From Accumulibacter sp. (GTDB taxonomy: Bacteria > Pseudomonadota > Gammaproteobacteria > Burkholderiales > Rhodocyclaceae), in contig NZ_JAMTDQ010000043.1 in the NCBI RefSeq assembly GCF_023806635.1, positions 1-64,000 on the forward strand: DNA of 64,000 nucleotides, given 5' to 3'. The notes beneath the pieces were generated by a model that was given only the letters and a program-made list of their open reading frames with translations, made no database searches and was not told the DNA's origin. Position 1 is the stretch's first letter. Each line of letters begins with the position of its first letter. The translations under genes were made by a program, and so were the position numbers. Below, piece after piece: positions 43,450 through 56,514 of this stretch.

Positions 43450-43992
43450 TCAGAACAGCGAACGCACGGCGGCGTCCATCTCGGCTCCGCTCATGGCGCC
43501 CAGCCGCGCCTGTTGCAGTTGCCCGTCACGGCCGATGAAGACGGTGAACGGCAGTCCGGACTTCGTGTTGCCGAGTGCCCGCATCAGCTCGATGCTGCGC
43601 TCGGTGCCACCGATCAGCCAGCGATAGTCGAGCTCATGCGCCCGCGCGAAATCAACCAGCGCCGCGCGCTTGTCGGCTTCCTCGACGGCGATGCCGACGA
43701 CGAGCAGCCCGCGGTCGGCGTAGCGCCTCTGCAGCTCGGCGAGCTCGGGAATCTCCTTGCGGCAGGGGGCGCACCAGCGGGCCCAGAAATTGACCAGCAG
43801 CGGTCGGCCGCGCAACGAAGCCAGCGGCAGTGGCCGGTTGTCGGCATCGGCGAGCGTCAGCGCGAAGAACGGCGCCGTCGACGGCGGCTCGGCGGCGCTC
43901 GCGGTCGTCAGCGGCAGCACGCAGAGGGCCGCCGCGAGCAGGCGCAGCAGTCGCCGCCACGGTCGGTGCGACGGTCGGCTAAGGCAGGTCAC
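43450..43992 (-). CDS. TlpA-like periplasmic thioredoxin
   Basis: 180 residues from GTG 43992, inside the nosY 3' end by 14 bases. A signal peptide (LLRLLAAALCVLPLTTASAA) is followed by a TlpA/ResA fold with active site NFWARWCAPCRKEIPEL and the cis-Pro segment SGLPFTVFIGRDG. It probably reduces cysteines of the Cu-delivery or maturation proteins for N2O reductase, because it is the last gene of the nos set. Confidence 0.88.
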   Translation of the reverse strand: MTCLSRPSHRPWRRLLRLLAAALCVLPLTTASAAEPPSTAPFFALTLADADNRPLPLASLRGRPLLVNFWARWCAPCRKEIPELAELQRRYADRGLLVVGIAVEEADKRAALVDFARAHELDYRWLIGGTERSIELMRALGNTKSGLPFTVFIGRDGQLQQARLGAMSGAEMDAAVRSLF

Positions 43993-44806
43993 TGCGACGG
44001 AAGCTCAGGTAACCGGCAACGGCAGCGAGCGTGCCGACGGCGGTCGGATAAAGCAGCGCATAGACGCGGAAGCCGCTGCTGCCGAAGAGATCGAGGATGA
44101 CGTAGGCCGACGGACCGAGGACGATCAGTTGCGGGTCGAACATCGCCAACGCCGCGGTGCGGAAGACCTGCAGCGGGTTGAGCAGGGCGATGCCGACCGC
44201 CACCTCGGGGGTCACCCGCCCCTGGATCATGACGCCGAGGAGGATCAGGTCGAGGAACAGCAGCATCGTCAGCCAGACCATGAAGGCCGCCCCCTGGGCG
44301 ACGTCGGTGCCGCGCGCCAGCGTCGATATCAGCATGCCGATGCCAAGGAAGCAGCACGCCATCGCCGCCAGCAGGCCGGTGTAGTAGAAGAACATCGCCC
44401 ACGGCACCTCGATCGAGCGGATCAGCGACCAGAGCACAGCGGCGAGCATGGCGACGAAGACCGGCAGGAAGATGATCACGTAACGGCCGAGGATCCTGCC
44501 CCAGAACCAGGCCGACAGCGACACCGGCAGCGACAGCAGGTATTCGAAGACGCCCGCCTCGCGGTCGCCGGCCACCGAGCGGACGGTGGTGATGAGGACG
44601 AAGACCGGCAGGATCGCCATCGTCAGCTGGATGTAGGTCACCAGCAGCCGCGACAGACCGATGAAACCCAGCACGCGCGACTCGGTCAGGCCGAAGGCGA
44701 AGAGCAGCGCGACGATGCCGCCGAAGACCAGGCTGTAGATCAGGAACCAGCGGGCGCGCAACGACTCGACGATGTCCAGGCGCGCGGTGAGGAGGAGCGC
44801 GTTCAT
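43979..44806 (-). CDS. nosY: NosY ABC transporter permease
   Basis: 275 residues with six predicted TM helices and the ABC-2 permease pattern (SVAGDREAGVFEYLLSLPVS). It is the permease partner of NosF in the NosDFY system needed to mature the CuZ site of N2O reductase. NosD is not in the window. The start is 10 bases after nosL. Confidence 0.9.
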   Translation of the reverse strand: MNALLLTARLDIVESLRARWFLIYSLVFGGIVALLFAFGLTESRVLGFIGLSRLLVTYIQLTMAILPVFVLITTVRSVAGDREAGVFEYLLSLPVSLSAWFWGRILGRYVIIFLPVFVAMLAAVLWSLIRSIEVPWAMFFYYTGLLAAMACCFLGIGMLISTLARGTDVAQGAAFMVWLTMLLFLDLILLGVMIQGRVTPEVAVGIALLNPLQVFRTAALAMFDPQLIVLGPSAYVILDLFGSSGFRVYALLYPTAVGTLAAVAGYLSFRRSDLP

Positions 44807-44816
44807 CGCCGGCGCC

Positions 44817-45290
44817 TCACTTGCCGCGCGCGACGATGCGCGCCTTCATCTCGGGGTAGGCGATCGTTCCGTCCTCGGCGACGGCGAGCGCGGCGAAGTG
44901 GTAGCCCATCGGACTCTTCCTGCCCGCCAGGTAGTGCGCCCGTCGGGCATCGATCCAGGCGCCGCTGCGGTAGTCGGCGACCCAGTACTCGAGCTGCGGC
45001 GTCTGCTCGTCGAACGGCTGCCGCGCGAGCCAGAAGATGGCGCAACCGATGTCGTCGAACTTCGCCACCTTGCCACCCGGCGCGCGGATCTGCACCGCGA
45101 AGCGCCGGTCGCTGATCACCATGCCGCAGCGCGGGTCGAGGTCGCGGTCCCATTTGATGTCGACCGGGCCGCTCGCCGGCTCGCCGATGCAGCCGCCGAG
45201 CGCCGCCGCCATGCCGCCGCCGAGCATCCCGCGGCAGCAAGGACCAGCAACGGCGGCCGGAACGATCTCGAGGAAGCAGCGTCGCTTCAT
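44817..45290 (-). CDS. nosL: NosL-like copper chaperone with Tat-type signal and lipobox
   Basis: 157 residues from ATG 45290, overlapping nosF by four bases (ATGA). The N-terminus MKRRCFLEI has an RRxFL twin-arginine pattern, and ALGGC near residue 34 is a lipobox, so a Tat-exported lipoprotein is possible. The NosL metal-binding block is DPRCGMVISDRRFAVQI, with the family Cys and Met. Then come FDDIGCAIFW and WVADYRSGAWIDARRAHYL, as in NosL. It supplies Cu(I) to N2O reductase. Nosd alternatives are not seen. Confidence 0.9.
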   Translation of the reverse strand: MKRRCFLEIVPAAVAGPCCRGMLGGGMAAALGGCIGEPASGPVDIKWDRDLDPRCGMVISDRRFAVQIRAPGGKVAKFDDIGCAIFWLARQPFDEQTPQLEYWVADYRSGAWIDARRAHYLAGRKSPMGYHFAALAVAEDGTIAYPEMKARIVARGK

Positions 45291-46165
45291 TGCAGGGCCA
45301 CCGCCGCGTCCACTTCGTGCATCTCGATGCGCGACAGCAGGCCGACATAGCGCGCAACCATGCCGAAGAAGCGCAGGCGATCGGCTCCGGACACCGTCCC
45401 GTGCCACTCGACGCCCGCCCGCCGGTCGGCAAACTGCCAGCTGCCGAGGGTGCGGGCGATCGCCGCGTCGGCGCGCGCGAGCGTCAGGTGCACCTCGAAC
45501 AGGGTCGACAGGCGCGACTCTTCGGCGACGCGGTCGTCGAGGACGATGCGCCCGGTGTCCATCTCGATCACCCGGTTCACCAGCGGCGCGACTTCGTCGA
45601 GGCGGTGGCTGGAGATGATCATCGTCGTGCTGCCGAGGCGCTCGGCGAGCAGGCTGAAGAAGATGTGGCGCGCCTCGGGGTCGAGGTTGGCCGCCGGCTC
45701 GTCCATCACCAGCAGCTCGCTATCGCGGCCCAGCGCGATGGCGATCAGCAGCTTCTGCTTCATGCCGCCGGACAGGCGATTGAACGGGCGCGCCAGGATG
45801 CCACCGACGTCGAGGCCGAGACGGCGCGCCAGCGCGTGCATGCGCTCGGCGTCGGTGGCGCAGACGGCGGCGGCGAAGGCGAGCAACTGACCGACCGGCA
45901 TCTTCAGCGGCGGCGGCAGTTGCGGCACGAAACCGACCTTGCCGAGCACCTGCGTCCGCTCGCCACGCGGTGCCAGTCCACCGATCGTCACCTCGCCCTG
46001 ATGCGTGTATTCGCCGAGCAGGCAGCGGATCAGCGTCGTCTTGCCGGCGCCGTTCGATCCGATCAGCGCGATCCGCTCGCCCGCGGCGATCTCGAGGTTG
46101 ACCCCGTCGAGCACACGCTGCTTCCGGAAATCCTTGCCGACGTTGGTCAGACGGATCATGCGCAA
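45287..46165 (-). CDS. nosF: NosF ABC transporter ATPase
   Basis: 292 residues. Walker A GSNGAGKTT, Q-loop region, signature LSGGMKQK, Walker B LLVMDEPAANLDPE and switch His (SSHRLDEVAPL) are all intact. It energises NosY. It starts 6 bases after nosH. Confidence 0.93.
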   Translation of the reverse strand: MRMIRLTNVGKDFRKQRVLDGVNLEIAAGERIALIGSNGAGKTTLIRCLLGEYTHQGEVTIGGLAPRGERTQVLGKVGFVPQLPPPLKMPVGQLLAFAAAVCATDAERMHALARRLGLDVGGILARPFNRLSGGMKQKLLIAIALGRDSELLVMDEPAANLDPEARHIFFSLLAERLGSTTMIISSHRLDEVAPLVNRVIEMDTGRIVLDDRVAEESRLSTLFEVHLTLARADAAIARTLGSWQFADRRAGVEWHGTVSGADRLRFFGMVARYVGLLSRIEMHEVDAAVALQ

Positions 46166-46171
46166 TCCTGT

Positions 46172-47134
46172 TCAGAGCAGCCTGTTGAGGCCCTTGACGT
46201 CGAAGACCAGCGCGCCGCTCGGGCAGACATCGACACACAGCCCGCAGCGGGTGCAATCCGGTCCGATCGGCGTCCTGAGGTCGGCGGCGCGTCCCTTGAT
46301 GACGACGTCGAGGACGTGCGGCACCAGGCAGACCTTGCGGCAATCGCCTTCGTGGAAGCAGTGCTCGAGCCGGTACTCGACGCGCAGCGGCGAAATGGCG
46401 CCGACCATACCATAGGTCAGGCCGATCGGGCAGACATAGCGACACCAGGCGCGGCGCGAGTAGAGCACCTCGAAGACGAGCAGCAGCAGCACCCAGGCGA
46501 GCGCCAGCGAGGGGCCGTAGATCAGCGCCCGCGACAGGATGCCGGTCGGCGAGATGGTCTCGAAGACGGTGTAGCCGCTGAGCAGGGCGAGCAGTGTGAA
46601 GGCGAGCCAGAAGATGCTGCGTGCGCCACGATGGAACTCGTGGTCGCTGACCAGCTTCTTCGCCACCAGCTTCAGGTGCAGCCACTCGAACCATTCGGCG
46701 ACGAGGTGGTACGGGCAGACCCAGGAACAGAAGGAGCGGCCGCCGAGCACCACCCAGAGGACGAAGACCGTCGCCGTACCGATGAACAGATTGACGATGA
46801 CGTGCCGGTGCGCCAGCATCACCTGCAGCGCCGAGTTGAGGTCGATCAGGTGGAAGCCGACGAAGCGCGACGCGGTCAGCGACCCCTCGAGCATCTGGAT
46901 GTCGAGCCAGAAGGAGAAGGTGAACAGGAGGTTGACGACGACCAGCACCGCCCAGCGGCGGTTGCGCCACCTGTGGTTGACCAGTTTGTGATCGTGCGCA
47001 TGCTGCTTCAGCGCAGCGAAGTCGGCCTTGGTCATCCGCTTCAGCTGGTGCACCTGCTGCGCTGCCGGAGTGATCCGCTGCGGCTTCTGCGGCGCGGCGC
47101 CGAACATGACGCGCAGGCGTTCGCTGGCGCTCAT
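46172..47134 (-). CDS. nosH: NosH/NapH-type membrane iron-sulfur protein
   Basis: 320 residues from ATG 47134, sharing one base with the nosG stop (TGATG). Four to five TM helices, two membrane cysteine motifs CSWVCPYH and CRYVCPIG, and a C-terminal ferredoxin motif CTRCGLCVDVCP match NapH-like quinol dehydrogenases. It passes electrons from quinol to NosG, then to N2O reductase. Confidence 0.92.
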   Translation of the reverse strand: MSASERLRVMFGAAPQKPQRITPAAQQVHQLKRMTKADFAALKQHAHDHKLVNHRWRNRRWAVLVVVNLLFTFSFWLDIQMLEGSLTASRFVGFHLIDLNSALQVMLAHRHVIVNLFIGTATVFVLWVVLGGRSFCSWVCPYHLVAEWFEWLHLKLVAKKLVSDHEFHRGARSIFWLAFTLLALLSGYTVFETISPTGILSRALIYGPSLALAWVLLLLVFEVLYSRRAWCRYVCPIGLTYGMVGAISPLRVEYRLEHCFHEGDCRKVCLVPHVLDVVIKGRAADLRTPIGPDCTRCGLCVDVCPSGALVFDVKGLNRLL

Positions 47135-48036
47135 CAGCTCGCCCACGGCTGGCGCGCGTCGATGACGATCGCTGCCGGATCGACCGGACAGATCATCTCG
47201 CAGACGCCGCAACCGACGCACTGCTCGAGCGGCTGCGGCCGGTACTGCCGGCTGCCGTCGGCAGCCACCCTCACCTGCATGGTGATCGCGTCGCCGATCG
47301 GGCACTCGCTGACGCACAGGTTGCACGGATCGCGCTCGTAGGGGTGGTCGCGCACGGCGACCGGGCGCCAGCGGTCGCGTTCGACGTAGCGCAGCCTGCC
47401 GCGGAAATCGGCGCCGCGCGCCTGGCCGCGAAAACCCTTGCCGAGCACCGCCAGGCATGAGTCGGGGCGCGCCAGCCGGGCGATCCCCATGCGCTCCGGG
47501 AGATTGAGCGTCGGCTCGGCGTCCTTCTCCTTCGCCTTCAGCAGCGGCGCCCGCGCCAGCGGCATCCCCGGGCGGGTCGCCAGCGAGGCCGGCTTGCGGT
47601 AGGTCAGCGAGCCGGTCGGGCAGGCAAGGACACACTGCACCGCATCGCAGGAGAAATCGCAGGCCTGCGCGCGCGCGTCGATCCACGGCACACCGATACC
47701 GAAGCCGCTGTCGATGTCGTCGAGCCGGATCGCCGCCACCGGGCAGACCTGCACGCACTGGCCGCACTTGATGCACGAAGCGAGGAAATCGCTCTCCTCG
47801 AGCGCACCGGGCGGCCGCAGGCGCGTCCGCCGGGCGCCGGCGACCGGCACGTAGCCGAGCATCGCCAGCCCAAGGACGCCGCCGACGAGGAACGCCGAGC
47901 GCAGGAAGCGGCGCCGGCTCGACTGCCGGCGCACCGGCGCCTTTGGCCGCCGGCTGCCGGCGGCCGCCGGCAGGGCGGCGTCGGCCGGCGGCTGCTGGAT
48001 TGCCGCAGGGCGCTCTTCGCCGGTCTTGCCGCTCAT
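47134..48036 (-). CDS. nosG: NosG/NapG-type periplasmic ferredoxin
   Basis: 300 residues from ATG 48036. The Tat signal SRRRFLRSAFLVGG lies after an Ala/Pro-rich leader of about 40 residues. Four cysteine clusters are present: CIKCGQCVQVCP, CDFSC...CVLACP, CNLCVSECP and CVGCGVCEMICP. This is the NapG-like partner of NosH. In clade II-type nos operons nosZ lies upstream, but here the upstream side is a scrambled region. Confidence 0.92.
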   Translation of the reverse strand: MSGKTGEERPAAIQQPPADAALPAAAGSRRPKAPVRRQSSRRRFLRSAFLVGGVLGLAMLGYVPVAGARRTRLRPPGALEESDFLASCIKCGQCVQVCPVAAIRLDDIDSGFGIGVPWIDARAQACDFSCDAVQCVLACPTGSLTYRKPASLATRPGMPLARAPLLKAKEKDAEPTLNLPERMGIARLARPDSCLAVLGKGFRGQARGADFRGRLRYVERDRWRPVAVRDHPYERDPCNLCVSECPIGDAITMQVRVAADGSRQYRPQPLEQCVGCGVCEMICPVDPAAIVIDARQPWAS

Positions 48037-48290
48037 CCGGCAGGCTCCCTGCCCGCGATGCCGCGCGACCCGCCGGCACGCGGCCGCAGGCCGCAAGACC
48101 GCCCGTTCAGCGCCGACGCCGCCGCCCGCAGCTCGGCCGGCAATGCGCGACCACAACCCGGCAGTTGCAACACCATCCCCATCCGTTCGTCCCGAATCTC
48201 GTTGAACCGGGTTCCACGCCGGCGCCTTCGTTCCCGAGGAGCACTGCGGCAACCTGTCGCACATTGTCGGCACATGCGCAGAACGATGTT

Positions 48291-48630: not shown

Positions 48631-48680
48631 GGTCAACCGGATGGCCGGATCCAGCGGCGTTGCCCAGCAGGAATCGACCC

Positions 48681-49187
48681 ATGCCTGAACTCGAAAGCAT
48701 TACCGTCAAAGGCTTCAAGAGCATCGCTTCGGTCGAAAGCCTGAAGCTCGGGGCAATCAATGTCGTTGTCGGTCCGAACGGCTCGGGCAAGTCCAATTTC
48801 ATCGGCGTGTTTTCGTTCCTCAATGCCATTCGCGCTGCCCGACTGCAGGATTACATCATCAAGGCGGGCGGTGCCGACAGAGTGCTGCATTTCGGCGCCA
48901 TGCAGACTCGGAAGATCGGGATCAGGATCGTCTTCCGGAACGAGCGCAACCAGTGCGCCATCGACCTTGAACCGACCGATGGCGACGAACTCGTTCCGAG
49001 CCTTGAGGTAGTTCACTTTTGGGACAGGGCGAAGCAGTCGCAGCCCTATAGCGAGGTGATCGCGCGGGCCGGCAAGGAGGCCGGCATCGGGGCGCCGAAA
49101 GGCACCCGGGTGGCGGGTTACGTGCGCGACCACCTTGATCGCTGGCGTCTGTATCACTTCCAAGACACCGGTTCCACGTCACCCTGA
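48681..49187 (+). CDS. AAA/OLD-like ATPase, N-terminal fragment
   Basis: 168 residues from ATG 48681. It begins with a SMC/RecF-type start (ITVKGFKSIASVESLKLGAI) and Walker A VVGPNGSGKSN. The frame stops just after VYHFQDTGSTSP-like sequence, the point where full proteins of this family continue with PM.. and the Walker B half. It is therefore truncated, missing about half. It is followed at once by a solitary CRISPR-like repeat. Together with the hsdM fragment it looks like debris of a defence or plasmid-type island. It could still be translated, but probably has no activity. Confidence 0.75.
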   Translation: MPELESITVKGFKSIASVESLKLGAINVVVGPNGSGKSNFIGVFSFLNAIRAARLQDYIIKAGGADRVLHFGAMQTRKIGIRIVFRNERNQCAIDLEPTDGDELVPSLEVVHFWDRAKQSQPYSEVIARAGKEAGIGAPKGTRVAGYVRDHLDRWRLYHFQDTGSTSP

Positions 49188-49194
49188 TTTGCTG

Positions 49195-49219
49195 CTTCCC
49201 CCGCGCTCGCGGGGATGGA
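49195..49219 (+). repeat. Solitary CRISPR-like repeat, copy A
   Basis: A 25-base unit with the stem CCCCGCG-CT-CGCGGGG, flanked by CTTC on the left and ATGGA on the right. It resembles type I-E repeats (for example the CCCCGC..GCGGGG core). It is identical to 57892-57916. No second repeat follows at spacer distance and no cas gene is in the window. Confidence 0.65.
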
Positions 49220-49221
49220 CC

Positions 49222-49441
49222 TGCTGCAGTGTGCAGCCTGCGATCGCGTCAACCGAAAGTCCTACCGCGAGCTTGTTGATCCAAGGCGCCGCGAGGCGGA
49301 TGGCCGCGTCGAAGGCCTGTCTCCCCTTATCAGTCAGCATGACCAGCGAGGCTCGCCAATGATGCGGATTGGACGCGAGGCGAACCAAGCCCTTCATCTC
49401 CAGATCGTTGACGATGCGTTGGACGTTCTGTCGATTCCAGG
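49222..49441 (-). pseudogene. MarR-family regulator fragment
   Basis: The minus strand encodes RQNVQRIVNDLEMKGLVRLA, NPHHWRASLVMLTDKGRQAF and LAAPWINKLAVGLS, a winged helix of the MarR type. The N-terminal helices are missing and the frame runs into the CRISPR-like repeat at its end. The gap 49442-49618 contains no gene. Confidence 0.7.
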
Positions 49442-49618
49442 GATCTTTGTGACAAGCAGCGGCACTCCTCCGCGCCGGGTTCACAGTCTGCGATCGATTG
49501 GTGCTGGTCTGCAATGACGCGAAGCCGATGGTGCGCCGCGCATCGGCCGTCTTCGGCCATGGAAACACGTTCGCGGACGCCGCAGCGCGACGGATCCCTC
49601 GATTGCCGCGGCTGCAGA

Positions 49619-50995
49619 TCAGGCAAGGCCAAAGAGAGCCAGGAAGAAGTTCGCCCGGGCGCCGAATCCTGCCGTGCTCTGCACGTTCCAGATGTAAATC
49701 AGGCCGAAAAACGTCCACACGCCGGCAATCCTCAGCACGCGTCTCAGTCTGCCGGCCGCTGCCGGTCGCCCGCCTCGGCGCTGCTCGCGCCACATCGAGA
49801 CAAAGATGCCCAGAGCCAGAAGGAAGCAGTAGAAGAACCGGGAGCGATGCCCATGAACTACGGCGACGATCTGGCCCTGGACCATCATCTCGTTCATCTT
49901 GATGATGTGATAGTACATGTTGCCAACGAACGCCGCTGCGAAGACGGCAGCCAACAGACGCAGAGTGGGCCAGTTGCGTAAACGGCTTCCCAGTTGGGCG
50001 AAGGTGGGCAGGAAGAAGAAATTGGCCATTACTTCCTTGAAATAGTAGTAATAGCGATTCCAGAACTCGACCACCGATTCCGCCAGCAGCGGCTTGTAGG
50101 TATTGCGGAAGACGTTGAAGCCGAACAGCCGAAGGATGGCGATCACCTTGAGGCCACTGATCGCATGCCGCAGCACCTGGTAGATCAGTTCGAGGTAGAC
50201 GCTGAGCCAGGATATCCAGACAGCGCCGCCCGTCGAGTCCTGTTCGATCAGCTGCGACAAACGGGGAATCTCCACGATGTGACCTCCGAGCCGTGCCGTC
50301 AGGGCATTTCCCGGCCCGTAGAACAGACCCTCGAGAGCAGCGAGCGTGATGGTCCAAAGAACGGCGAGAACGAGGAGTTTGATGCCGGCGAGCTGCGAAC
50401 GGGCGAGGTCCTTCTCGTTCATCGCCTCGCACCGCGAGAGATAGGTAAAACCCTTCCCGTAGGGCGTGTTGGAGCCGCCGTAGATGGGCCAGATGGTCAG
50501 AAAGTGATCGGCGAACCGCGTGCCGGTCATCCGTCCGTACTGCCCGGCGAACAGCAGGTAGCCCAAACGCCAGATCAGGAAGGGGAACATCAGGAGTACG
50601 GCAGCGAGTACCTCGCGCCACAGGCCACTCGTCGGGGTGGTGGCCCACAGGATCAGCAGACCAACCCAATAGGACGAATGCAGGGTGAGCTGTGGATGCC
50701 GTCTCACGAGCAGCGGCAGGGATGCGAACGCGGTGGCGGCGCGATGACAAAGCCAGACGACCGCAAGCAGCGCGACGAGCGCAGCCGCCAAAGCGATTCC
50801 ATCGCCCGCAACGGGGTATTCCTCCAGCCTGAACTGCTGCAGAGGCTTCCTGAAGAACACCCAGAGTGCGCCGAGAGAGAGGATTGTCCGACGTCTGCGA
50901 GGTGTCAGCCATCGCAGCGAGCCGCCCATGTGCTCCTCCCACCAGGCCAGGACCTTCTCGTTCTCGTGGAACTGCCGCAGCTGGCTGATCTGCAT
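49619..50995 (-). CDS. MBOAT-like membrane O-acyltransferase
   Basis: 458 residues with about ten predicted TM helices. The block ESVVEFWNRYYYYFKEVMAN then FFFLPTF parallels the MBOAT hallmark (FWRRWH..., followed by Y.P), and GNMYYHIIKMNEM holds a His where MBOAT enzymes have the catalytic His of GLWHG. It is divergent, so the call is at family level. MBOAT proteins such as DltB move an acyl group from a carrier protein or CoA to an acceptor across the membrane. It follows the ligase-carrier-lyase genes in the same direction after a 335-base gap, hence the dlt-like interpretation. Confidence 0.65.
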   Translation of the reverse strand: MQISQLRQFHENEKVLAWWEEHMGGSLRWLTPRRRRTILSLGALWVFFRKPLQQFRLEEYPVAGDGIALAAALVALLAVVWLCHRAATAFASLPLLVRRHPQLTLHSSYWVGLLILWATTPTSGLWREVLAAVLLMFPFLIWRLGYLLFAGQYGRMTGTRFADHFLTIWPIYGGSNTPYGKGFTYLSRCEAMNEKDLARSQLAGIKLLVLAVLWTITLAALEGLFYGPGNALTARLGGHIVEIPRLSQLIEQDSTGGAVWISWLSVYLELIYQVLRHAISGLKVIAILRLFGFNVFRNTYKPLLAESVVEFWNRYYYYFKEVMANFFFLPTFAQLGSRLRNWPTLRLLAAVFAAAFVGNMYYHIIKMNEMMVQGQIVAVVHGHRSRFFYCFLLALGIFVSMWREQRRGGRPAAAGRLRRVLRIAGVWTFFGLIYIWNVQSTAGFGARANFFLALFGLA

Positions 50996-51330
50996 CAGGA
51001 ACTCTCAAGAAACAAGATCGCAAGCATTTGCCTTTTATGGAACGCCGTCGGCGCGATCGGCGGCCTTGGGATGCTCAGAAGAAGATGGACGGTTGGCAAG
51101 CGGTCATCCGGGTGATCGGTTCGCTCCGGCGACATCCCCGGTAGCGGCAGCCAGCGGTCGGAGCCTGTTGGGCGGGTGGCAGAATGCAGGGCACTGCACG
51201 GGAAGAAGCCGAGGATGGACCGCCGGCGGTCGCGTGGCTGTCAGAGCCAGCCTGCGGAGGGAAGCGCGCGCCGGTACGTGGTGGCGATTGCGGAGCACGC
51301 CAGCGGCCGATACCCGGGCAGGAGCCAATC
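50996..51330. other. Gene-free gap between MBOAT-like and lyase-like genes
   Basis: 335 bases with no credible reading frame, promoter or terminator that I can identify. It could hold an internal promoter for the MBOAT gene. Confidence 0.4.
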
Positions 51331-52191
51331 CTACGGACGTGCATCCCGTCTCGCCAGATTCTCCGTCAGGATCTGCGTGCAGTCCTTGACCCCGATCCGG
51401 CTGCCGGCGAGGGTGCCGTCACGCGCCTTGAGATCGAGCATGGCATCTTCGATGGCTGCCTGGGCCGCGAACAGGCAGGGTGTGCTGTAAATCACCAGCG
51501 AAACCCCGGCATCGTGAAGTTCGTCCTGGGTGCAGGGTGGCGACTTCCCGCCAGCGATCTGATTGAAGCAGAAAGGCCGGTCGACCACTCGTGATAGTTC
51601 GCGAACAACCTCGAGGCTGGTCAGCCCATCAACCAGCACGGCATCCGCGCCGGCCGCGGCAAAGGCTTCGACGCGCTGCCGAATCTCATCCAGCTCTCCC
51701 ACATCCGTACGCGCGATGACCAGCATGTCGCGTCTTGTCGCCAGGACGGCGCGCAGCTTGGCCAGGTATTCATCGAGAGGCATGATCTGCTTGCCCTCGA
51801 AATGCCCACAGCGGCGAGGCCTCTTCTGGTCTTCGAGCACGACCCCCGAGGCGCCAACAGCTTCGAGTACCGACACGACGTGGCAGGCCACCTCGGGGTC
51901 GCAGTAGCCGTCATCGATGTCGACCAGCAGGTTGTGCGTCGGCAGCACGGTACGCAAGCGCTGCACGTAGGCGACGATGTCGGTCCAAGTGATGAAGCCG
52001 ATGTCGGGCAGTCCGTAGTTGCTGGCCGCAAAGCCAAATCCGCTGACGAACAGGCTGTCGAAGTGGCGGCCGGCCAGGGCGGCGGAGAAGACATCGTAAA
52101 CCCCGATGAAGGGTAGGATGTGGCTGTTCGCGATCGACTCCCGCAGACGAACTCCCGGCGAAGAGGTCGTGCGCAATGCTTGTGTATTCAC
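51331..52191 (-). CDS. Isocitrate lyase/PEP mutase superfamily enzyme
   Basis: 286 residues from GTG 52191, overlapping the carrier gene stop as GTGA. Superfamily motifs are present: LFVSGFGFAASNYGLPD, the Mg-binding LVDIDDGYCDP, EDQKRPRRCGH then EGK with the lyase-type catalytic Cys, and VIARTD. The Cys and EDQ favour a C-C lyase (methylisocitrate/dimethylmalate/oxaloacetate-type) over a phosphonomutase, which has EDK..NS. It probably makes or breaks a small carboxylic acid. Its position directly after ligase and carrier suggests it supplies the ligase substrate (inference). Confidence 0.85.
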   Translation of the reverse strand: MNTQALRTTSSPGVRLRESIANSHILPFIGVYDVFSAALAGRHFDSLFVSGFGFAASNYGLPDIGFITWTDIVAYVQRLRTVLPTHNLLVDIDDGYCDPEVACHVVSVLEAVGASGVVLEDQKRPRRCGHFEGKQIMPLDEYLAKLRAVLATRRDMLVIARTDVGELDEIRQRVEAFAAAGADAVLVDGLTSLEVVRELSRVVDRPFCFNQIAGGKSPPCTQDELHDAGVSLVIYSTPCLFAAQAAIEDAMLDLKARDGTLAGSRIGVKDCTQILTENLARRDARP

Positions 52192-52448
52192 GGGTTGGCC
52201 TTGTCGATCAGGTCAACGATGCTGGCCATCGTCGAGAGCCGTTCAGGGTCGAAACCGCCGGCGGAAATGTCGATTCCGTATGTCTTCTCGAGATAGAGGA
52301 CGATCTGCACGATTGCCAGCGAATCGAGCAGGCCGGAGGCGAACAGGTTGTCATGGACGCCGACGCTCTCGATCGGTTTGTTGGGCTTCTGGATCGTGCG
52401 CAGGTAAACGATGAGATCCTGCAGACGCTGCTCGCTATCGCCGCTCAT
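52188..52448 (-). CDS. Acyl/peptidyl carrier protein (DltC-like size)
   Basis: 86 residues from ATG 52448, overlapping the ligase stop as ATGA. The phosphopantetheine site is in LFASGLLDSLAIVQIVLYLE (Ser43). The length and single-domain layout match DltC and other discrete carriers. It should be loaded by the upstream ligase. A phosphopantetheinyl transferase is not in the window. Confidence 0.9.
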   Translation of the reverse strand: MSGDSEQRLQDLIVYLRTIQKPNKPIESVGVHDNLFASGLLDSLAIVQIVLYLEKTYGIDISAGGFDPERLSTMASIVDLIDKANP

Positions 52449-53965
52449 CCGCTCATCTCCCCGGCAAGGACATGCGCCAGATCGAGCGGCGTCAGCCCGG
52501 CGCAGGCCGCCTTGACGGCGTCGCGATTGATCTTGCCGCGGGAGGTGCGGGGGATTTCGTCCACAAGCCACCAGCGCATCGGCATCTTGTGCTCGGCGAG
52601 TTGCGACCTCATCCAACTGTGCAGGGCCTGGATCGTCGCGCTTTCCGAATTGGTCAGGACGACCGCCATCCCGACTGCCTGCCCGTAGACCTCGTCATCC
52701 AGTGCGAAGGTGCAGACATCGCTCGCCCCTTCGAAACGTTCGACGACCGTATCCACGTCAGAGGGGTAGATCTTCATTCCGCCCCTGTTGATCTCGTCCC
52801 GCTCACGGCCTCGCAACACCAGCCTGCCGTGTTCATCGAGAAAGCCGATGTCGCCAGTCAGGAACCAGCCGTCGCGAACGGCCAGGGCTGTCAGGTCGTC
52901 ACGCTGGAAGTAGCCTTTCATCAGTGCCGGAGTATTGAGCCAGACAAAACCCGATTCCCCGGGCAGGCATTCGTCTTCCGGAACGAGCGGCCGCGTCGTG
53001 TCGGCGGTGTGCAGCACCTTGATGATCGCGCCCCAACCTGCGCCGATCAGACCGTCTTCGGCAGCGCAATCGGCATTGCCAAGGCCCGCGACCCAACTGC
53101 CGGTCTCGGTGATCCCGTAGGAATTGCAGACCTGGCGCGTACCCGTCCAGGCACGGATTTCCTCCCATGCGTGTGCCGACAGCGGGGCCGAGCCACAATG
53201 GACACGTTGCAGGGTCCCTGCCTGCGGCGGCTTGGACAGTCTGGTCGCCAGCTTCCAGACCGCAGGCACCGACGACAGAAAGGTGATCCGGTGGTCATCG
53301 ATCATCTGACCGAGCCGGATGATGATCTCCGGGCGGAAGGGCGGGGTGACGAACAGATCCATGCCGGAAAGCCACGGGAACAGGCAATTGCAGATCAGGC
53401 CGTGGCCAAAGTGCGTCGGCAGCAGGCAGAGCGTGCGGGCGAAAGGGGCAACGCCGAGGTGGTCGCGCAGCCCCATCCAGCGCGCGCGCAACGAGCGATG
53501 GGTGTGGACGACCCCCTTCGGTGCTCCCGTCGAGCCGGAGGTGAACAGAATCAGCGCGTCATCGTCGAGCTGGCTGAAGCCGGCGGTCGCCTCCTCGTCA
53601 CCTGCCTGTGTCGTCTCCACAACAGGCACGCCCGCGTCAGCCAGCGCCTCGGCGACAGCCGCTTCGGTCAGGTGATCGACGACAGCCAATCTGGGAAGTG
53701 CCGCCGAAACCAGGGTCCGGATCTCGAATGCCGTCAGGCGCGAGTCGATCGGTACCGCGCAGGCCCCCAACTTCCAGATTGCCAGCAACTCGGCAAAAAA
53801 CTCGAGGCTATTCCCGAATGGCAGGAAGACCCGGTCTCCTCGGGACAATCCACAGCGTGTGAAGCGGGCAACCCGTCGCGCCACTTGGCGAGCAATCTCG
53901 GACTGGCTCCATGCCCGCCCACTGACTGGCTCCGCCAGGTTTCCCACACCCAGATCCAAGAACAT
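52445..53965 (-). CDS. AMP-forming acyl/amino-acid ligase
   Basis: 506 residues. ANL motifs are intact: LFTSGSTGAPKGVVHTHRS (A3), NSYGITETG (A5), GWFLTGDIGFLDEHGRL (A7), RGRERDEINRGGMKIYP (A8) and PRTSRGKINRD with the A10 Lys. The substrate pocket cannot be read reliably. AAGGAG lies before ATG 53965. It is the first gene of a tight ligase-carrier-lyase run and probably adenylates a small acid and loads it onto the carrier. Confidence 0.9.
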   Translation of the reverse strand: MFLDLGVGNLAEPVSGRAWSQSEIARQVARRVARFTRCGLSRGDRVFLPFGNSLEFFAELLAIWKLGACAVPIDSRLTAFEIRTLVSAALPRLAVVDHLTEAAVAEALADAGVPVVETTQAGDEEATAGFSQLDDDALILFTSGSTGAPKGVVHTHRSLRARWMGLRDHLGVAPFARTLCLLPTHFGHGLICNCLFPWLSGMDLFVTPPFRPEIIIRLGQMIDDHRITFLSSVPAVWKLATRLSKPPQAGTLQRVHCGSAPLSAHAWEEIRAWTGTRQVCNSYGITETGSWVAGLGNADCAAEDGLIGAGWGAIIKVLHTADTTRPLVPEDECLPGESGFVWLNTPALMKGYFQRDDLTALAVRDGWFLTGDIGFLDEHGRLVLRGRERDEINRGGMKIYPSDVDTVVERFEGASDVCTFALDDEVYGQAVGMAVVLTNSESATIQALHSWMRSQLAEHKMPMRWWLVDEIPRTSRGKINRDAVKAACAGLTPLDLAHVLAGEMSG

Positions 53966-54792: not shown

Positions 54793-55745
54793 ATGCAGAT
54801 GGCTTGTAAACCCTTGTCGAATCCGTCTACTCTCGTCTCGTGGGCGACCGAAATGATGGTGACGAAGGGGGCAAGCCTGATGTGCTGCTTGAAGGAAGTG
54901 GAGGATCCACGCAAACCGAGCCACCGAACGCTGAATGACTTCGCAGAGATGCTGGTGAACGCGATGGCAACGGCGCCGTCCGATTGTGACACCATTGAAG
55001 ACATCGCGGACTGGGGACGAACGAAGGAGCCGAGGTTGCGCAAGTCCCTGGTGCTGAACAACGGCATCCCCTCCGAGGAGACGCTTCTGCGGATCTTCCG
55101 AGCGCTGAACCCAAAGCAGTTCGCGGTCGCATTCCGCCGCTGGGTGGTCGGGGTCGTTGGCGCTCTGAGAGGCGGTGTTGCGGTCGACGGCAAGACGGTG
55201 CGCGGTTCGGGCAGCGGCGGTGAGACGGCGATTTACATGGTCAGTGCCTTCGCGACCGAGTTGGGCATCGTGCTGGGGCAGGAAAAGGTGGCCAGCAAGA
55301 GCAATCAGATCACGGCGATCCCGGAACTGCTCAAGGCGCTGTATCTCAACGGGTTGCTGGTCTCCATCGATGCCATGGGACGCCCGAAGAGCATTGCCCG
55401 CCAGACCACGGATCAAGGGGGGACTACCTGCTGCCGGTCAAAGGCAACCAGCCGACGCTGCATGAGGACTCGATACCGATTTCATTGACCAGTCTGGTTG
55501 CGACACAGTGGAACATCACGGGCTCGCCTGCAAGTCCCGTGGTCGAATCGTCGGACACGTTGCCTCGGTTCTGCCGGCGCACGGTATCGTTGATCTGACT
55601 GATTGGCCCAAGTGCCGGACGATCGGCTTGGTCGACTCCCTGCGCCAGGTCGGCAACAACGAATCCAGCTTCGAGCGGCGCCACTGCATCAGCTCTGGCG
55701 AACTGACCGCCGAGCAACAGGCTGCGTCCGTCCGAAGCCACTGCC
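54793..55745 (+). pseudogene. ISAs1-family transposase, frameshifted and 3'-truncated
   Basis: Frame 1 has VEDPRKPSHRTLNDFAEML, ALRGGVAVDGKTVRGSGSGG (first catalytic Asp), SNQITAIPELLKAL and LLVSIDAMG (second Asp). At a run of six Gs (55417-55422) the homology moves to another frame (GDYLLPVKGNQPTLHED), consistent with one lost G. Near 55470 it moves again (VEHHGLACKSRGRIVGHVAS, WPKCRTIGLVDSLRQVG, FERRHCISS). It is joined to IS66 sequence near 55745. The start may be the ATG at 54793 or one at 54853-54856. Confidence 0.85.
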
Positions 55746-56514
55746 CCCTTCTTCGAGAGTCGCGAGATCAAGCACGTCGAGGCGGCGCTGGGGCTGACGC
55801 CGGCCGAGCGAGCGGTGCTGCTGTCGGATGGCTACCACGCCTATGCCCACTACGCGGCGAAGACCGGGATCACCCATGCCCAATGCTGGGCGGATACCCG
55901 TCGTGGCTTCTTCGAGGCGCAGGCCGCCGAACCGGCAGCCGGAGCCGAGGCGCTGGCGCTGATCGGCGAGTTGTATCAGGTCGAGGAAGACATCCGCCAG
56001 GCCGGGCTGGGTGGCGAGTGCAGGAAGGATCATCGGCTGGCGCATGCCAAGCCGGTCGTCGAGCGCTTCTTCGCCTGGATCGATGAACGGTTCGCGGCGC
56101 AGGGTCTGCTGTCGAGCAATCCGCTGACCAAGGCGCTGGCCTATGCCCGCGACCGCCGCTTTGGACTGGAAGTGTTTCTTACCGACCCGGACGTGCCGAT
56201 CGATACGAATCATCTCGAGCGGGCCCTGCGCGTGATTCCGATGGGTCGCCGCAACTGGATGTTCTGCTGGACCGAACTCGGTGCCCGGCACGTCGGCATC
56301 CTGCAAAGCCTGATCGTCACCTGTCGGCTGCACGACATCAACCCGTATGACTATCTGGTCGATGTCCTGCAACGCGTCGGACAGCACCCGGCCGACCGCG
56401 TCCACGAACGCACGCCCCGCTGCTGGAAGGTACTCTTCGCCGCCAACCCGCTGCGCTCTCCCTTGTACCGCCAGGCTCCATAGGCGCGGCGAACGCCGCA
56501 GGGCTACCGGTTAC
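55746..56514 (+). mobile_element. IS66 remnant A (transposase C-terminal part + right end)
   Basis: The open frame to the TAG at 56481-56483 encodes the IS66 TnpC C-terminus: LLSDGYHAYAHYAAKTGITH, AKPVVERFFAWIDERF, DTNHLERALRVIPMGRRNWM and VGILQSLIVTCRLHDINPYD. The 5' two thirds of the element, including tnpA/tnpB, are gone. The right terminus reads inward GTAACCGGTAGCCCTGCGGC from 56514, with the GTAA start typical of IS66. Confidence 0.88.

What the first reader, a model, noticed from the sequence alone, without database searches (positions are those of the whole stretch)
49619..53965. dlt-like pathway built on an isocitrate-lyase/PEP-mutase-superfamily enzyme
An AMP-forming ligase, a discrete carrier protein and an ICL/PEPM-superfamily lyase overlap by four bases each, followed by an MBOAT-like membrane acyltransferase in the same direction. 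This mirrors dltA-dltC-dltB logic (activate, load, transfer across the membrane), but with a C-C lyase-type enzyme (RRCGH motif) added and no dltD. I do not know a described system with this set. It could decorate an envelope or extracellular polymer with a small carboxylic acid.
Basis: partly seen in the sequence, partly recalled or inferred. Interest (0 to 1): 0.75.

Follow-up and report, generated by a model that had tools for sequence, protein, structure and literature searches.

The report
Carrier-fed envelope acylation cassette with lyase
Four neighbouring genes look like a small production line that makes or picks up a small organic acid, hangs it on a carrier protein and hands it through the inner membrane to decorate the cell envelope; it resembles the teichoic-acid system of Gram-positive bacteria but uses different enzymes and occurs in Gram-negative bacteria, and the acid and its target are still unknown.

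Summary
On the minus strand lie an AMP-forming ligase, a carrier protein and an isocitrate-lyase/PEP-mutase-type enzyme with 4-base overlaps, then, 335 nt on, a membrane protein. That protein has no Pfam, NCBIfam or PDB sequence match, but its AlphaFold2 model (pLDDT 91.6) finds DltB first in the PDB and keeps one histidine in 44 of 44 aligned relatives: an MBOAT. The set is conserved. In 61 genomes the close membrane protein and the close lyase occur in the same 7. Of 66 loci from a species-wide scan, 27 carry this ligase type beside the membrane protein; 11 of these also carry the lyase (13 counting two genomes that hold it on another contig). Another ligase type, DltA-like, never has the lyase beside it (0 of 28). 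15 of the 27 adjoin a PF00884 membrane protein (CptA/EptC-like or LtaS/OpgB-like in most tested), which suggests phospho-substituted envelope glycans as acceptors. The lyase is a distinct subfamily; elsewhere it was found fused to a carrier-like domain, and between an oxalate-ligase-like and an oxalyl-CoA-decarboxylase-like enzyme. Oxalate or another small acid is the best guess. The literature searches made gave no description. No activity is measured.

The parts
52445..53965 (-). LIG: AMP-forming acid ligase, 506 aa, predicted to adenylate a small carboxylic acid and load it on the carrier
   Evidence: PF00501 195 bits and PF13193; nearest solved sequences are FadD13, feruloyl/fatty-acyl-CoA, malonyl-CoA and oxalate-CoA ligases; pocket motifs THFGHGLICN, GSAPL, ITETGSW kept in the 20 of 27 relatives long enough to compare; C-terminal lysine (GKIN) kept
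52188..52448 (-). ACP: stand-alone carrier protein, 86 aa, attachment serine in GLLDSL
   Evidence: PF00550 31.6 bits; best NCBIfam model DltC, 34.4 bits, below its cut-off of 68; 4-base overlaps on both sides
51331..52191 (-). LYASE: isocitrate lyase/PEP mutase superfamily enzyme, 286 codons, GTG start
   Evidence: PF13714 123.6 bits; signature D94, R126, A213, S236 of a separate subfamily; S236 shared with oxaloacetate acetylhydrolase 3lye and petal death protein 1zlp
49619..50995 (-). MBOAT: multi-helix membrane O-acyltransferase, 458 aa, DltB-like fold
   Evidence: AlphaFold2 pLDDT 91.6; Foldseek best hits DltB 6bug (E 6.6e-6, TM 0.57) and 8jem; His363 in 44 of 44 aligned sequences
50996..51330 (.). 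335-nt gap between lyase and MBOAT; no gene assigned

Best explanation
It is a Dlt-like, carrier-protein-fed acylation cassette of a Gram-negative envelope. Step 1 (inferred): the lyase makes a small carboxylic acid from a central metabolite; oxalate from oxaloacetate is the leading candidate. Step 2 (inferred from families and overlapping genes): the ligase adenylates that acid and loads it on the phosphopantetheine of the carrier. Step 3 (inferred from fold and the invariant histidine): the MBOAT takes the acyl group from the carrier on the cytoplasmic side and esterifies an acceptor on the periplasmic side. Step 4 (inferred from neighbours in relatives): the acceptor is probably a lipid-linked or periplasmic glycan or polymer that may also receive phosphoethanolamine or phosphoglycerol from PF00884 transferases. 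What is shown here is the gene content, the predicted fold of the MBOAT and the conservation; no activity is shown.
For: Co-occurrence: close MBOAT (>=56% identity) and close lyase (>=78%) in the same 7 of 61 genomes (one further genome, G014, keeps only an MBOAT fragment); contiguous in 6; in the 7th (G017) ligase-carrier-lyase lie together while the MBOAT lies on another contig beside a PF00884 gene. Wide set: of 66 loci, 42 have this MBOAT type (one a remnant); of these 27 have this ligase, 8 a DltA-like ligase, 33 a carrier, 11 the lyase, 19 a PF00884 protein. Fold: the three Foldseek hits with E <= 0.001 are all DltB. DltB has its carrier on the cytoplasmic side and an invariant His336 at the outer active site (PMC11035591, passages); here one histidine, H363, is kept in 44 of 44. 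The ligase motifs are the same with and without the lyase in the 20 compared, so one acid is likely used throughout. A tested PF00884 neighbour (L036) is CptA/EptC-like (876 bits against 404 for PRK10649, but 866 against 900 for the CptA domain model); L037, L110 and L102 are LtaS/OpgB-like below cut-offs; L117 is unspecific.
Against: No enzyme activity or product is known. The lyase was not found in 14 of 27 ligase-type cases even genome-wide (completeness of these genomes is not given), so it is not essential to the scheme. Transcription as one unit is uncertain in the window because of the 335-nt gap. The window's own locus has no PF00884 neighbour (6 such genes lie on other contigs), so the acceptor link rests on relatives. 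The TM-score to DltB is moderate (0.57). His289 is described as a second conserved histidine of DltB; here only H363 is invariant. The window ligase lacks two of the three residues I recall as oxalate-binding.
Confidence: 0.68

Rival explanations
1. The lyase does not supply the acid: it acts on the acid after it is bound to the carrier (for example aldol-type or hydrolytic change of the thioester-bound chain), so the transferred group is a product made on the carrier.
For: In genome G679 a carrier-like domain and the lyase are one protein (382 aa; PP-binding 19.5 bits, just under its cut-off of 20.8). The subfamily differs from the compared lyases at D94, R126 and A213, which would suit a new substrate.
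Against: Lyase relatives (56-60%) also lie on Streptomyces, Kitasatospora and Embleya plasmids (5 hits, 4 looked at), and a further one in genome G1037, with no ligase or carrier recognised nearby; but only the Kitasatospora record is annotated, the others were judged from ORF starts without a family search.
Confidence: 0.2
2. The membrane protein passes the acid to a lipid acceptor, so that the cassette makes a modified lipid (for example an acylated phospholipid or lipid A) and not a decorated glycan or polymer.
For: PF00884 neighbours include CptA/EptC-like phosphoethanolamine transferases, which by recall act on lipid-anchored LPS core; the DltB paper describes a lipid-binding cleft (PMC11035591, passages).
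Against: LtaS/OpgB-like neighbours and the DltB likeness fit polymers or glycans just as well.
Confidence: 0.2
3. Natural-product pathway: the cassette makes a secreted small molecule with an O-acyl group, and the MBOAT is its last tailoring step.
For: One lyase relative lies beside a nonribosomal-peptide-synthetase-like piece (L197).
Against: No such gene was recognised beside the MBOAT cassettes among the ORF starts read in part of the loci or the ten neighbours scanned with Pfam; PF00884 genes adjoin 15 of 27. The remaining neighbours were not scanned.
Confidence: 0.08

Closest known systems
Dlt system (DltA-DltC-DltB-DltD), teichoic acid D-alanylation
   Same: Ligase charges a discrete carrier, and a membrane protein with the DltB fold is the predicted transferase (Dlt logic from passages of PMC9338922 and PMC11035591); LtaS-like PF00884 neighbours in some relatives echo the polymer synthase.
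   Different: Ligase is not DltA-type; carrier scores below the DltC cut-offs; no DltD in the genome; MBOAT has no Pfam/NCBIfam/PDB sequence match; extra lyase; Gram-negative hosts.
Sister cassette found here: DltA-like ligase + MBOATp + carrier
   Same: Same MBOAT family (about 30% identity), a carrier in 17 of 24 loci, a PF00884 neighbour in 4 of 24.
   Different: Ligase of the one tested (L043) is amino-acid/DltA-like (TIGR01733 345 bits, over its cut-off; TIGR01734 277 bits, under it); no lyase in 28 loci with this ligase type.
Alm system of Vibrio cholerae (glycine on lipid A)
   Same: Ligase and carrier feed an envelope acyltransferase in a Gram-negative (PMC3783018, passages).
   Different: AlmG is described there as an LPLAT-domain protein, not an MBOAT; the substrate is an amino acid.
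AlgI/PatA MBOATs of Gram-negative O-acetylation
   Same: MBOAT-dependent acyl decoration outside the cytoplasm (named in PMC9558356, passages).
   Different: I recall no dedicated ligase and carrier for them; PatA works with the SGNH protein PatB, and no SGNH gene was seen in the conserved part of this cassette (DltD tested genome-wide; other SGNH families not searched).
Oxaloacetate acetylhydrolase / petal death protein (ICL/PEPM superfamily)
   Same: Same superfamily and the serine at window position 236.
   Different: R126 for lysine, A213 for glutamate, D94 for threonine.

Membership tests
Dlt system | DltA-type D-alanine ligase | tested here: not met
   Best NCBIfam models are acyl-CoA ligases; amino-acid adenylation domain 168.3 bits against a cut-off of 317.4; DltA is not among the 25 shown of 107
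Dlt system | Discrete DltC-type carrier | tested here: inconclusive
   DltC models are best and third best but below cut-off (34.4 of 68 and 30.9 of 52.35 bits)
Dlt system | DltB: MBOAT fold with an invariant histidine | tested here: met
   Foldseek best hits 6bug and 8jem; H363 in 44 of 44; the histidines were not superposed
Dlt system | DltD | tested here: not met
   PF04914: 0 matches in the genome; the control rings in Bacillus subtilis and Lactococcus lactis
Dlt system | D-alanine as the transferred group | not testable with these tools
   The ligase lacks the FDFS stretch seen in the DltA-like sister, which is only suggestive
Pfam MBOAT (PF03062) | Sequence match above cut-off | tested here: not met
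   No Pfam family up to E = 1 for the window protein or for four relatives
ICL/PEP mutase superfamily | PF13714 above cut-off; DxD, EDQ and CGH motifs | tested here: met
   123.6 bits against 31.5; D91/D93, EDQ, RRCGH, RTD present
Methylisocitrate lyase (PrpB) | Equivalog score | tested here: not met
   161.4 bits against 354.4
PEP mutase / phosphonopyruvate hydrolase | Equivalog score | tested here: not met
   76.5 of 319.55 and 51.2 of 374.4 bits
Oxaloacetate acetylhydrolase | Marker serine (its role is recalled; the source paper is not held) | tested here: met
   S236 in 19 of 19 of the subfamily; serine in 0 of 27 scorable of 30 other hits; serine in 3lye and 1zlp, proline in 3fa3, 4iqd and 1o5q
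Oxaloacetate acetylhydrolase | Lysine of the KxCGH motif | tested here: not met
   Arginine in the window and in 17 of 19 of the subfamily, lysine in the other two
Oxalate-CoA/carrier ligase | Oxalate-binding His214, Ser289, His319 of plant oxalyl-CoA synthetase (roles recalled) | tested here: not met
   By alignment the window ligase reads Phe, Ser, Ser at these places; the G443 ligase has all three

The most novel reading that the evidence does not exclude
An oxalylation system: the lyase is an oxaloacetate acetylhydrolase that makes oxalate, the ligase makes oxalyl-carrier, and a new class of carrier-fed MBOAT places oxalyl half-esters (an extra negative charge and metal ligand) on a phospho-substituted envelope polymer of Gram-negative bacteria, the counterpart of teichoic acid D-alanylation with the opposite charge effect.
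Probability: 0.2. Interest if true: 0.88.

Novelty: new variant of a known kind. Interest (0 to 1): 0.68.

Why it matters
A 2023 review notes that, except for DltB, the MBOATs it covers use acyl-CoA as donor (PMC10213974, passages). Here is a family of MBOATs that the sequence libraries do not recognise and that usually sits beside a ligase and a carrier (35 and 33 of 42 loci) in Proteobacteria, Verrucomicrobia and others. It suggests that Gram-negative bacteria have Dlt-like decoration of the envelope with acids not yet catalogued, including in Accumulibacter, by recall the phosphorus-removal organism of wastewater plants, whose extracellular matrix is of practical interest. The lyase subfamily gives a handle on the identity of the acid.

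Tried and rejected
Rejected: the HGH near residue 382 of the membrane protein as the catalytic motif (not conserved; H363 is). Rejected: methylisocitrate lyase, PEP mutase, phosphonopyruvate hydrolase (below equivalog cut-offs). Not upheld: direct assignment of the window ligase as an oxalate ligase by pocket residues. A pattern scan of viral contigs and a tblastn of plasmids found no relative of the MBOAT. A tblastn of the lyase against plasmids at E <= 1e-45 gave five actinomycete records only. 369 class-level genomes: MBOAT at E <= 1e-25 in 3 (own, and two of about 34% identity), lyase at E <= 1e-50 in 2 (own and G443, which has the lyase without such an MBOAT); 398 phylum-level genomes: lyase at E <= 1e-45 in 2 (own and G679); 29 genomes of the family of G679: 1; 318 of its class, with the G679 lyase as query: 2. 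The cassette is therefore rare and patchy, and the lyase also occurs without it.

VIA-align was not available. Literature searches whose listings showed no description of this set: (open-licence full texts only; subscription papers and preprints are not held); two searches looked for oxaloacetate acetylhydrolase papers. The structure paper of that enzyme is not held, so the meaning of its serine is from recall. Passages only were seen of PMC9338922, PMC11035591, PMC10213974, PMC9558356, PMC11279074, PMC3783018, PMC9321520, PMC10445470, PMC9229766; no paper was read whole.
Full report
What is there. On the minus strand of 49619-53965 lie four intact genes: an AMP-forming ligase (506 aa), a carrier protein (86 aa), an isocitrate-lyase/PEP-mutase-type enzyme (286 codons, GTG start) and a membrane protein (458 aa). 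Ligase/carrier and carrier/lyase overlap by ATGA and GTGA; the membrane protein follows after 335 nt. Pfam places the first three above cut-off. The membrane protein has no match in Pfam or NCBIfam (E up to 1) or, as a profile, in the PDB sequences.

The organism. Its genus mates G021, G022 and G009 have contigs of the same lengths as named records of Candidatus Accumulibacter necessarius, meliphilus and appositus (21877, 41455 and 115497 bases), so the genus is very probably Candidatus Accumulibacter (inference).

Is the membrane protein an MBOAT? Aligned with the proteins of 43 of the 66 loci found by the scan described below (A3; short pieces and near-duplicates left out) its AlphaFold2 model has mean pLDDT 91.6 and pTM 0.89. 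Foldseek against the PDB returns DltB first (6bug, E 6.6e-6, TM 0.57; 8jem next; these are the only hits with E <= 0.001), then PORCN, HHAT and LPCAT3, all MBOATs. One histidine, H363 in GNMYYH, is invariant in 44 of 44, as are 7 of the 11 residues of FWNRYYYYFKE. The HGH triplet that catches the eye in the window is not conserved. DltB's invariant His336 lies at the outer face and its carrier docks at the inner face (PMC11035591, passages). I did not superpose H363 on His336, and DltB's second histidine, His289, has no invariant counterpart here.

Is the set conserved? In 61 genomes (own plus 60 relatives) 15 have some relative of the membrane protein; the close form (>=56% identity over nearly the whole length) is in 7, and the close lyase (>=78%) in the same 7. 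A further genome, G014, keeps only a fragment of it. In six genomes the four genes are contiguous: MBOAT-ligase-carrier-lyase in four, ligase-carrier-lyase-MBOAT in the window genome and its nearest relative G015; in G009 the ligase reads in two frames. In the seventh (G017) ligase-carrier-lyase lie together on one contig and the MBOAT on another beside a PF00884 gene. Eight of the 61 genomes also or instead carry a sister cassette with an MBOAT about 30% identical, a different ligase and a carrier, without the lyase; a ninth (G012) shows that MBOAT alone near a contig end. The one sister ligase tested is DltA-like (L043).

A scan of the species-genome collection (84,980 species) with two patterns from the MBOAT alignment gave 66 loci, in Accumulibacter, Propionivibrio, Methylophilaceae, Rheinheimera, Rhodoferax, Verrucomicrobia/Chthoniobacterales, Deltaproteobacteria, Magnetococcales, Alphaproteobacteria, Nitrospirae and others. 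These are loci, not independent lineages: some genomes give two, and several repeat the Accumulibacter genomes above. Counting genes chained within 1.5 kb by tblastn: 42 loci have the window's MBOAT type (one, L152, is a remnant); 27 of these have the window's ligase type, 8 the DltA-like ligase, 7 no recognised ligase; 33 have a carrier, 11 the lyase, 19 a PF00884 protein. The other 24 have the sister MBOAT: 20 with the DltA-like ligase, 0 with the window's ligase, 17 with a carrier, 0 with the lyase, 4 with PF00884. The lyase thus goes only with the window's ligase type (11 of 27 against 0 of 28; Fisher P 1.1e-4, not corrected for shared ancestry). For all 16 ligase-type loci without an adjacent lyase the genome was searched: 2 hold it on another contig beside a ligase piece and a carrier (L200, L201; a broken or second cassette), 14 hold nothing above 38% identity (completeness of these genomes is not given). 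So the lyase goes with 13 of 27 and is optional.

What the ligase says. Its nearest solved sequences are FadD13, feruloyl/fatty-acyl-CoA, malonyl-CoA and, further down, oxalate-CoA ligases, not DltA. Its pocket motifs (THFGHGLICN, GSAPL, ITETGSW) are kept in the 20 relatives long enough to compare (of 27), with or without the lyase. One acid is therefore probably used throughout (inference). Of the three residues I recall as oxalate-binding in plant oxalyl-CoA synthetase it has only the serine.

What the lyase says. It belongs to a subfamily with D94 (18 of 19), R126 (17 of 19), A213 (19 of 19) and S236 (19 of 19). In 30 other PEPM-type relatives (of 34 loci given, four without a hit at E <= 1e-10) the same places read T (27) or N (3), K (30), mostly E (23; A in one), and at 236 P (23), A (3), G (1) or not aligned (3), never S. 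S236 is shared with oxaloacetate acetylhydrolase 3lye and petal death protein 1zlp, whereas 3fa3, 4iqd and 1o5q have proline; that this serine marks oxaloacetate cleavage is recalled. The other changes warn against a simple transfer of function.

Other contexts of the lyase subfamily. In G443 (62% identical) it lies between an adenylation domain fused to a carrier domain (E 1e-120 to oxalyl-CoA synthetase 6qjz; all three recalled oxalate-binding residues present) and a thiamine-type enzyme whose best NCBIfam model is oxalyl-CoA decarboxylase (337 bits, cut-off 557; best PDB hits 2-hydroxyacyl-CoA lyase and oxalyl-CoA decarboxylase), followed by a nonribosomal-peptide-synthetase-like piece. In G679 (50%) the cluster has a ligase with two of the window ligase's three motifs (nearly), then a protein whose first part is a carrier-like domain (19.5 bits, cut-off 20.8) and whose second is the lyase, near PseB-, PseC-, PseH- and LpxD-like genes (all below their cut-offs) and a weak PF00884 protein. 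In G1037 and in four of five actinomycete plasmid hits looked at, no ligase or carrier was recognised nearby (only one record annotated, the rest judged from ORF starts). The lyase seems to be a supply enzyme recruited into acyl-carrier pathways more than once; the G443 case points to oxalate.

What the neighbours say. PF00884 proteins adjoin 15 of the 27 ligase-type cassettes, 12 on the same strand. The G009 one (L036) is CptA/EptC-like (876 bits against 404 for PRK10649, 866 against 900 for the CptA domain model; E 7e-138 to EptC 5zzu), and those of G022 and G024 are 88% and 61% identical to it. Four others were tested: L037, L110 and L102 are LtaS/OpgB-like below cut-offs, L117 is unspecific. 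The sister cassette has CptA/EptC-like neighbours too (L132 by family search; L131 and L136 by tblastn). By recall such enzymes act on envelope glycans and lipids outside the membrane, which fits an acceptor there. The window genome has six PF00884 genes, none on the contig of the cassette.

How it works, most likely. Lyase makes the acid, ligase loads the carrier, MBOAT passes the acyl group through the membrane to an envelope acceptor. The gene set, predicted fold and conservation are shown; substrate, carrier loading, transfer and acceptor are inferred.

Comparison. It works like Dlt but is not a member: no DltA-type ligase, no DltD, MBOAT outside Pfam's model. It differs from the Alm system in the transferase (PMC3783018, passages). 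Literature searches (open-licence full texts, listings) gave no description of this set.

Verdict. Real, conserved, and in all likelihood a functional acyl-decoration cassette of a kind known from Gram-positives but built from a different ligase, an MBOAT family that the libraries do not recognise and an optional lyase of a distinct subfamily. New variant of a known kind; interest 0.68.

Noticed in passing
window 43979-48079, minus strand: Next to the cassette lie an ABC-2 permease, an ABC ATPase and 4Fe-4S ferredoxin-type proteins; by recall they look like nosY, nosF and nosG/nosH of nitrous oxide reduction (Pfam domains only).
   Followed up: partly
window 54793-56483: Upstream of the ligase lie transposase genes or pieces (DDE_Tnp_1 type, and IS66 with its C-terminal element), so the cassette may be rearranged; its gene order differs from four of six contiguous Accumulibacter cassettes.
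   Followed up: partly
window 48660-49454: Downstream, a short SMC/AAA ATPase start and a weak MarR-like fragment (below cut-off) suggest an eroded boundary.
   Followed up: no
L048 5858-8281 (G014): Between flanking genes like those of G022 (EAL fragment and TrkA genes) only a piece of the MBOAT is left: the cassette may have been lost as a unit.
   Followed up: partly
L105 5166-14788 (Deltaproteobacteria RIFCSPLOWO2): DltA-like ligase, carrier, four MBOAT genes in tandem and a PF00884 gene in a row; several acceptors or positions may be served by one carrier.
   Followed up: no
L036 10483-12008 (G009): The ligase reads in two overlapping frames, a frameshift or a sequencing error.
   Followed up: no
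L197 351-6510 (G443): Possible oxalyl-carrier natural-product cluster: oxalate-ligase-like/carrier fusion, lyase, oxalyl-CoA-decarboxylase-like enzyme and a nonribosomal-peptide-synthetase-like piece.
   Followed up: partly
L040, L041, L042, L043: Sister cassettes in the same genus carry two different MBOAT genes around one carrier.
   Followed up: no
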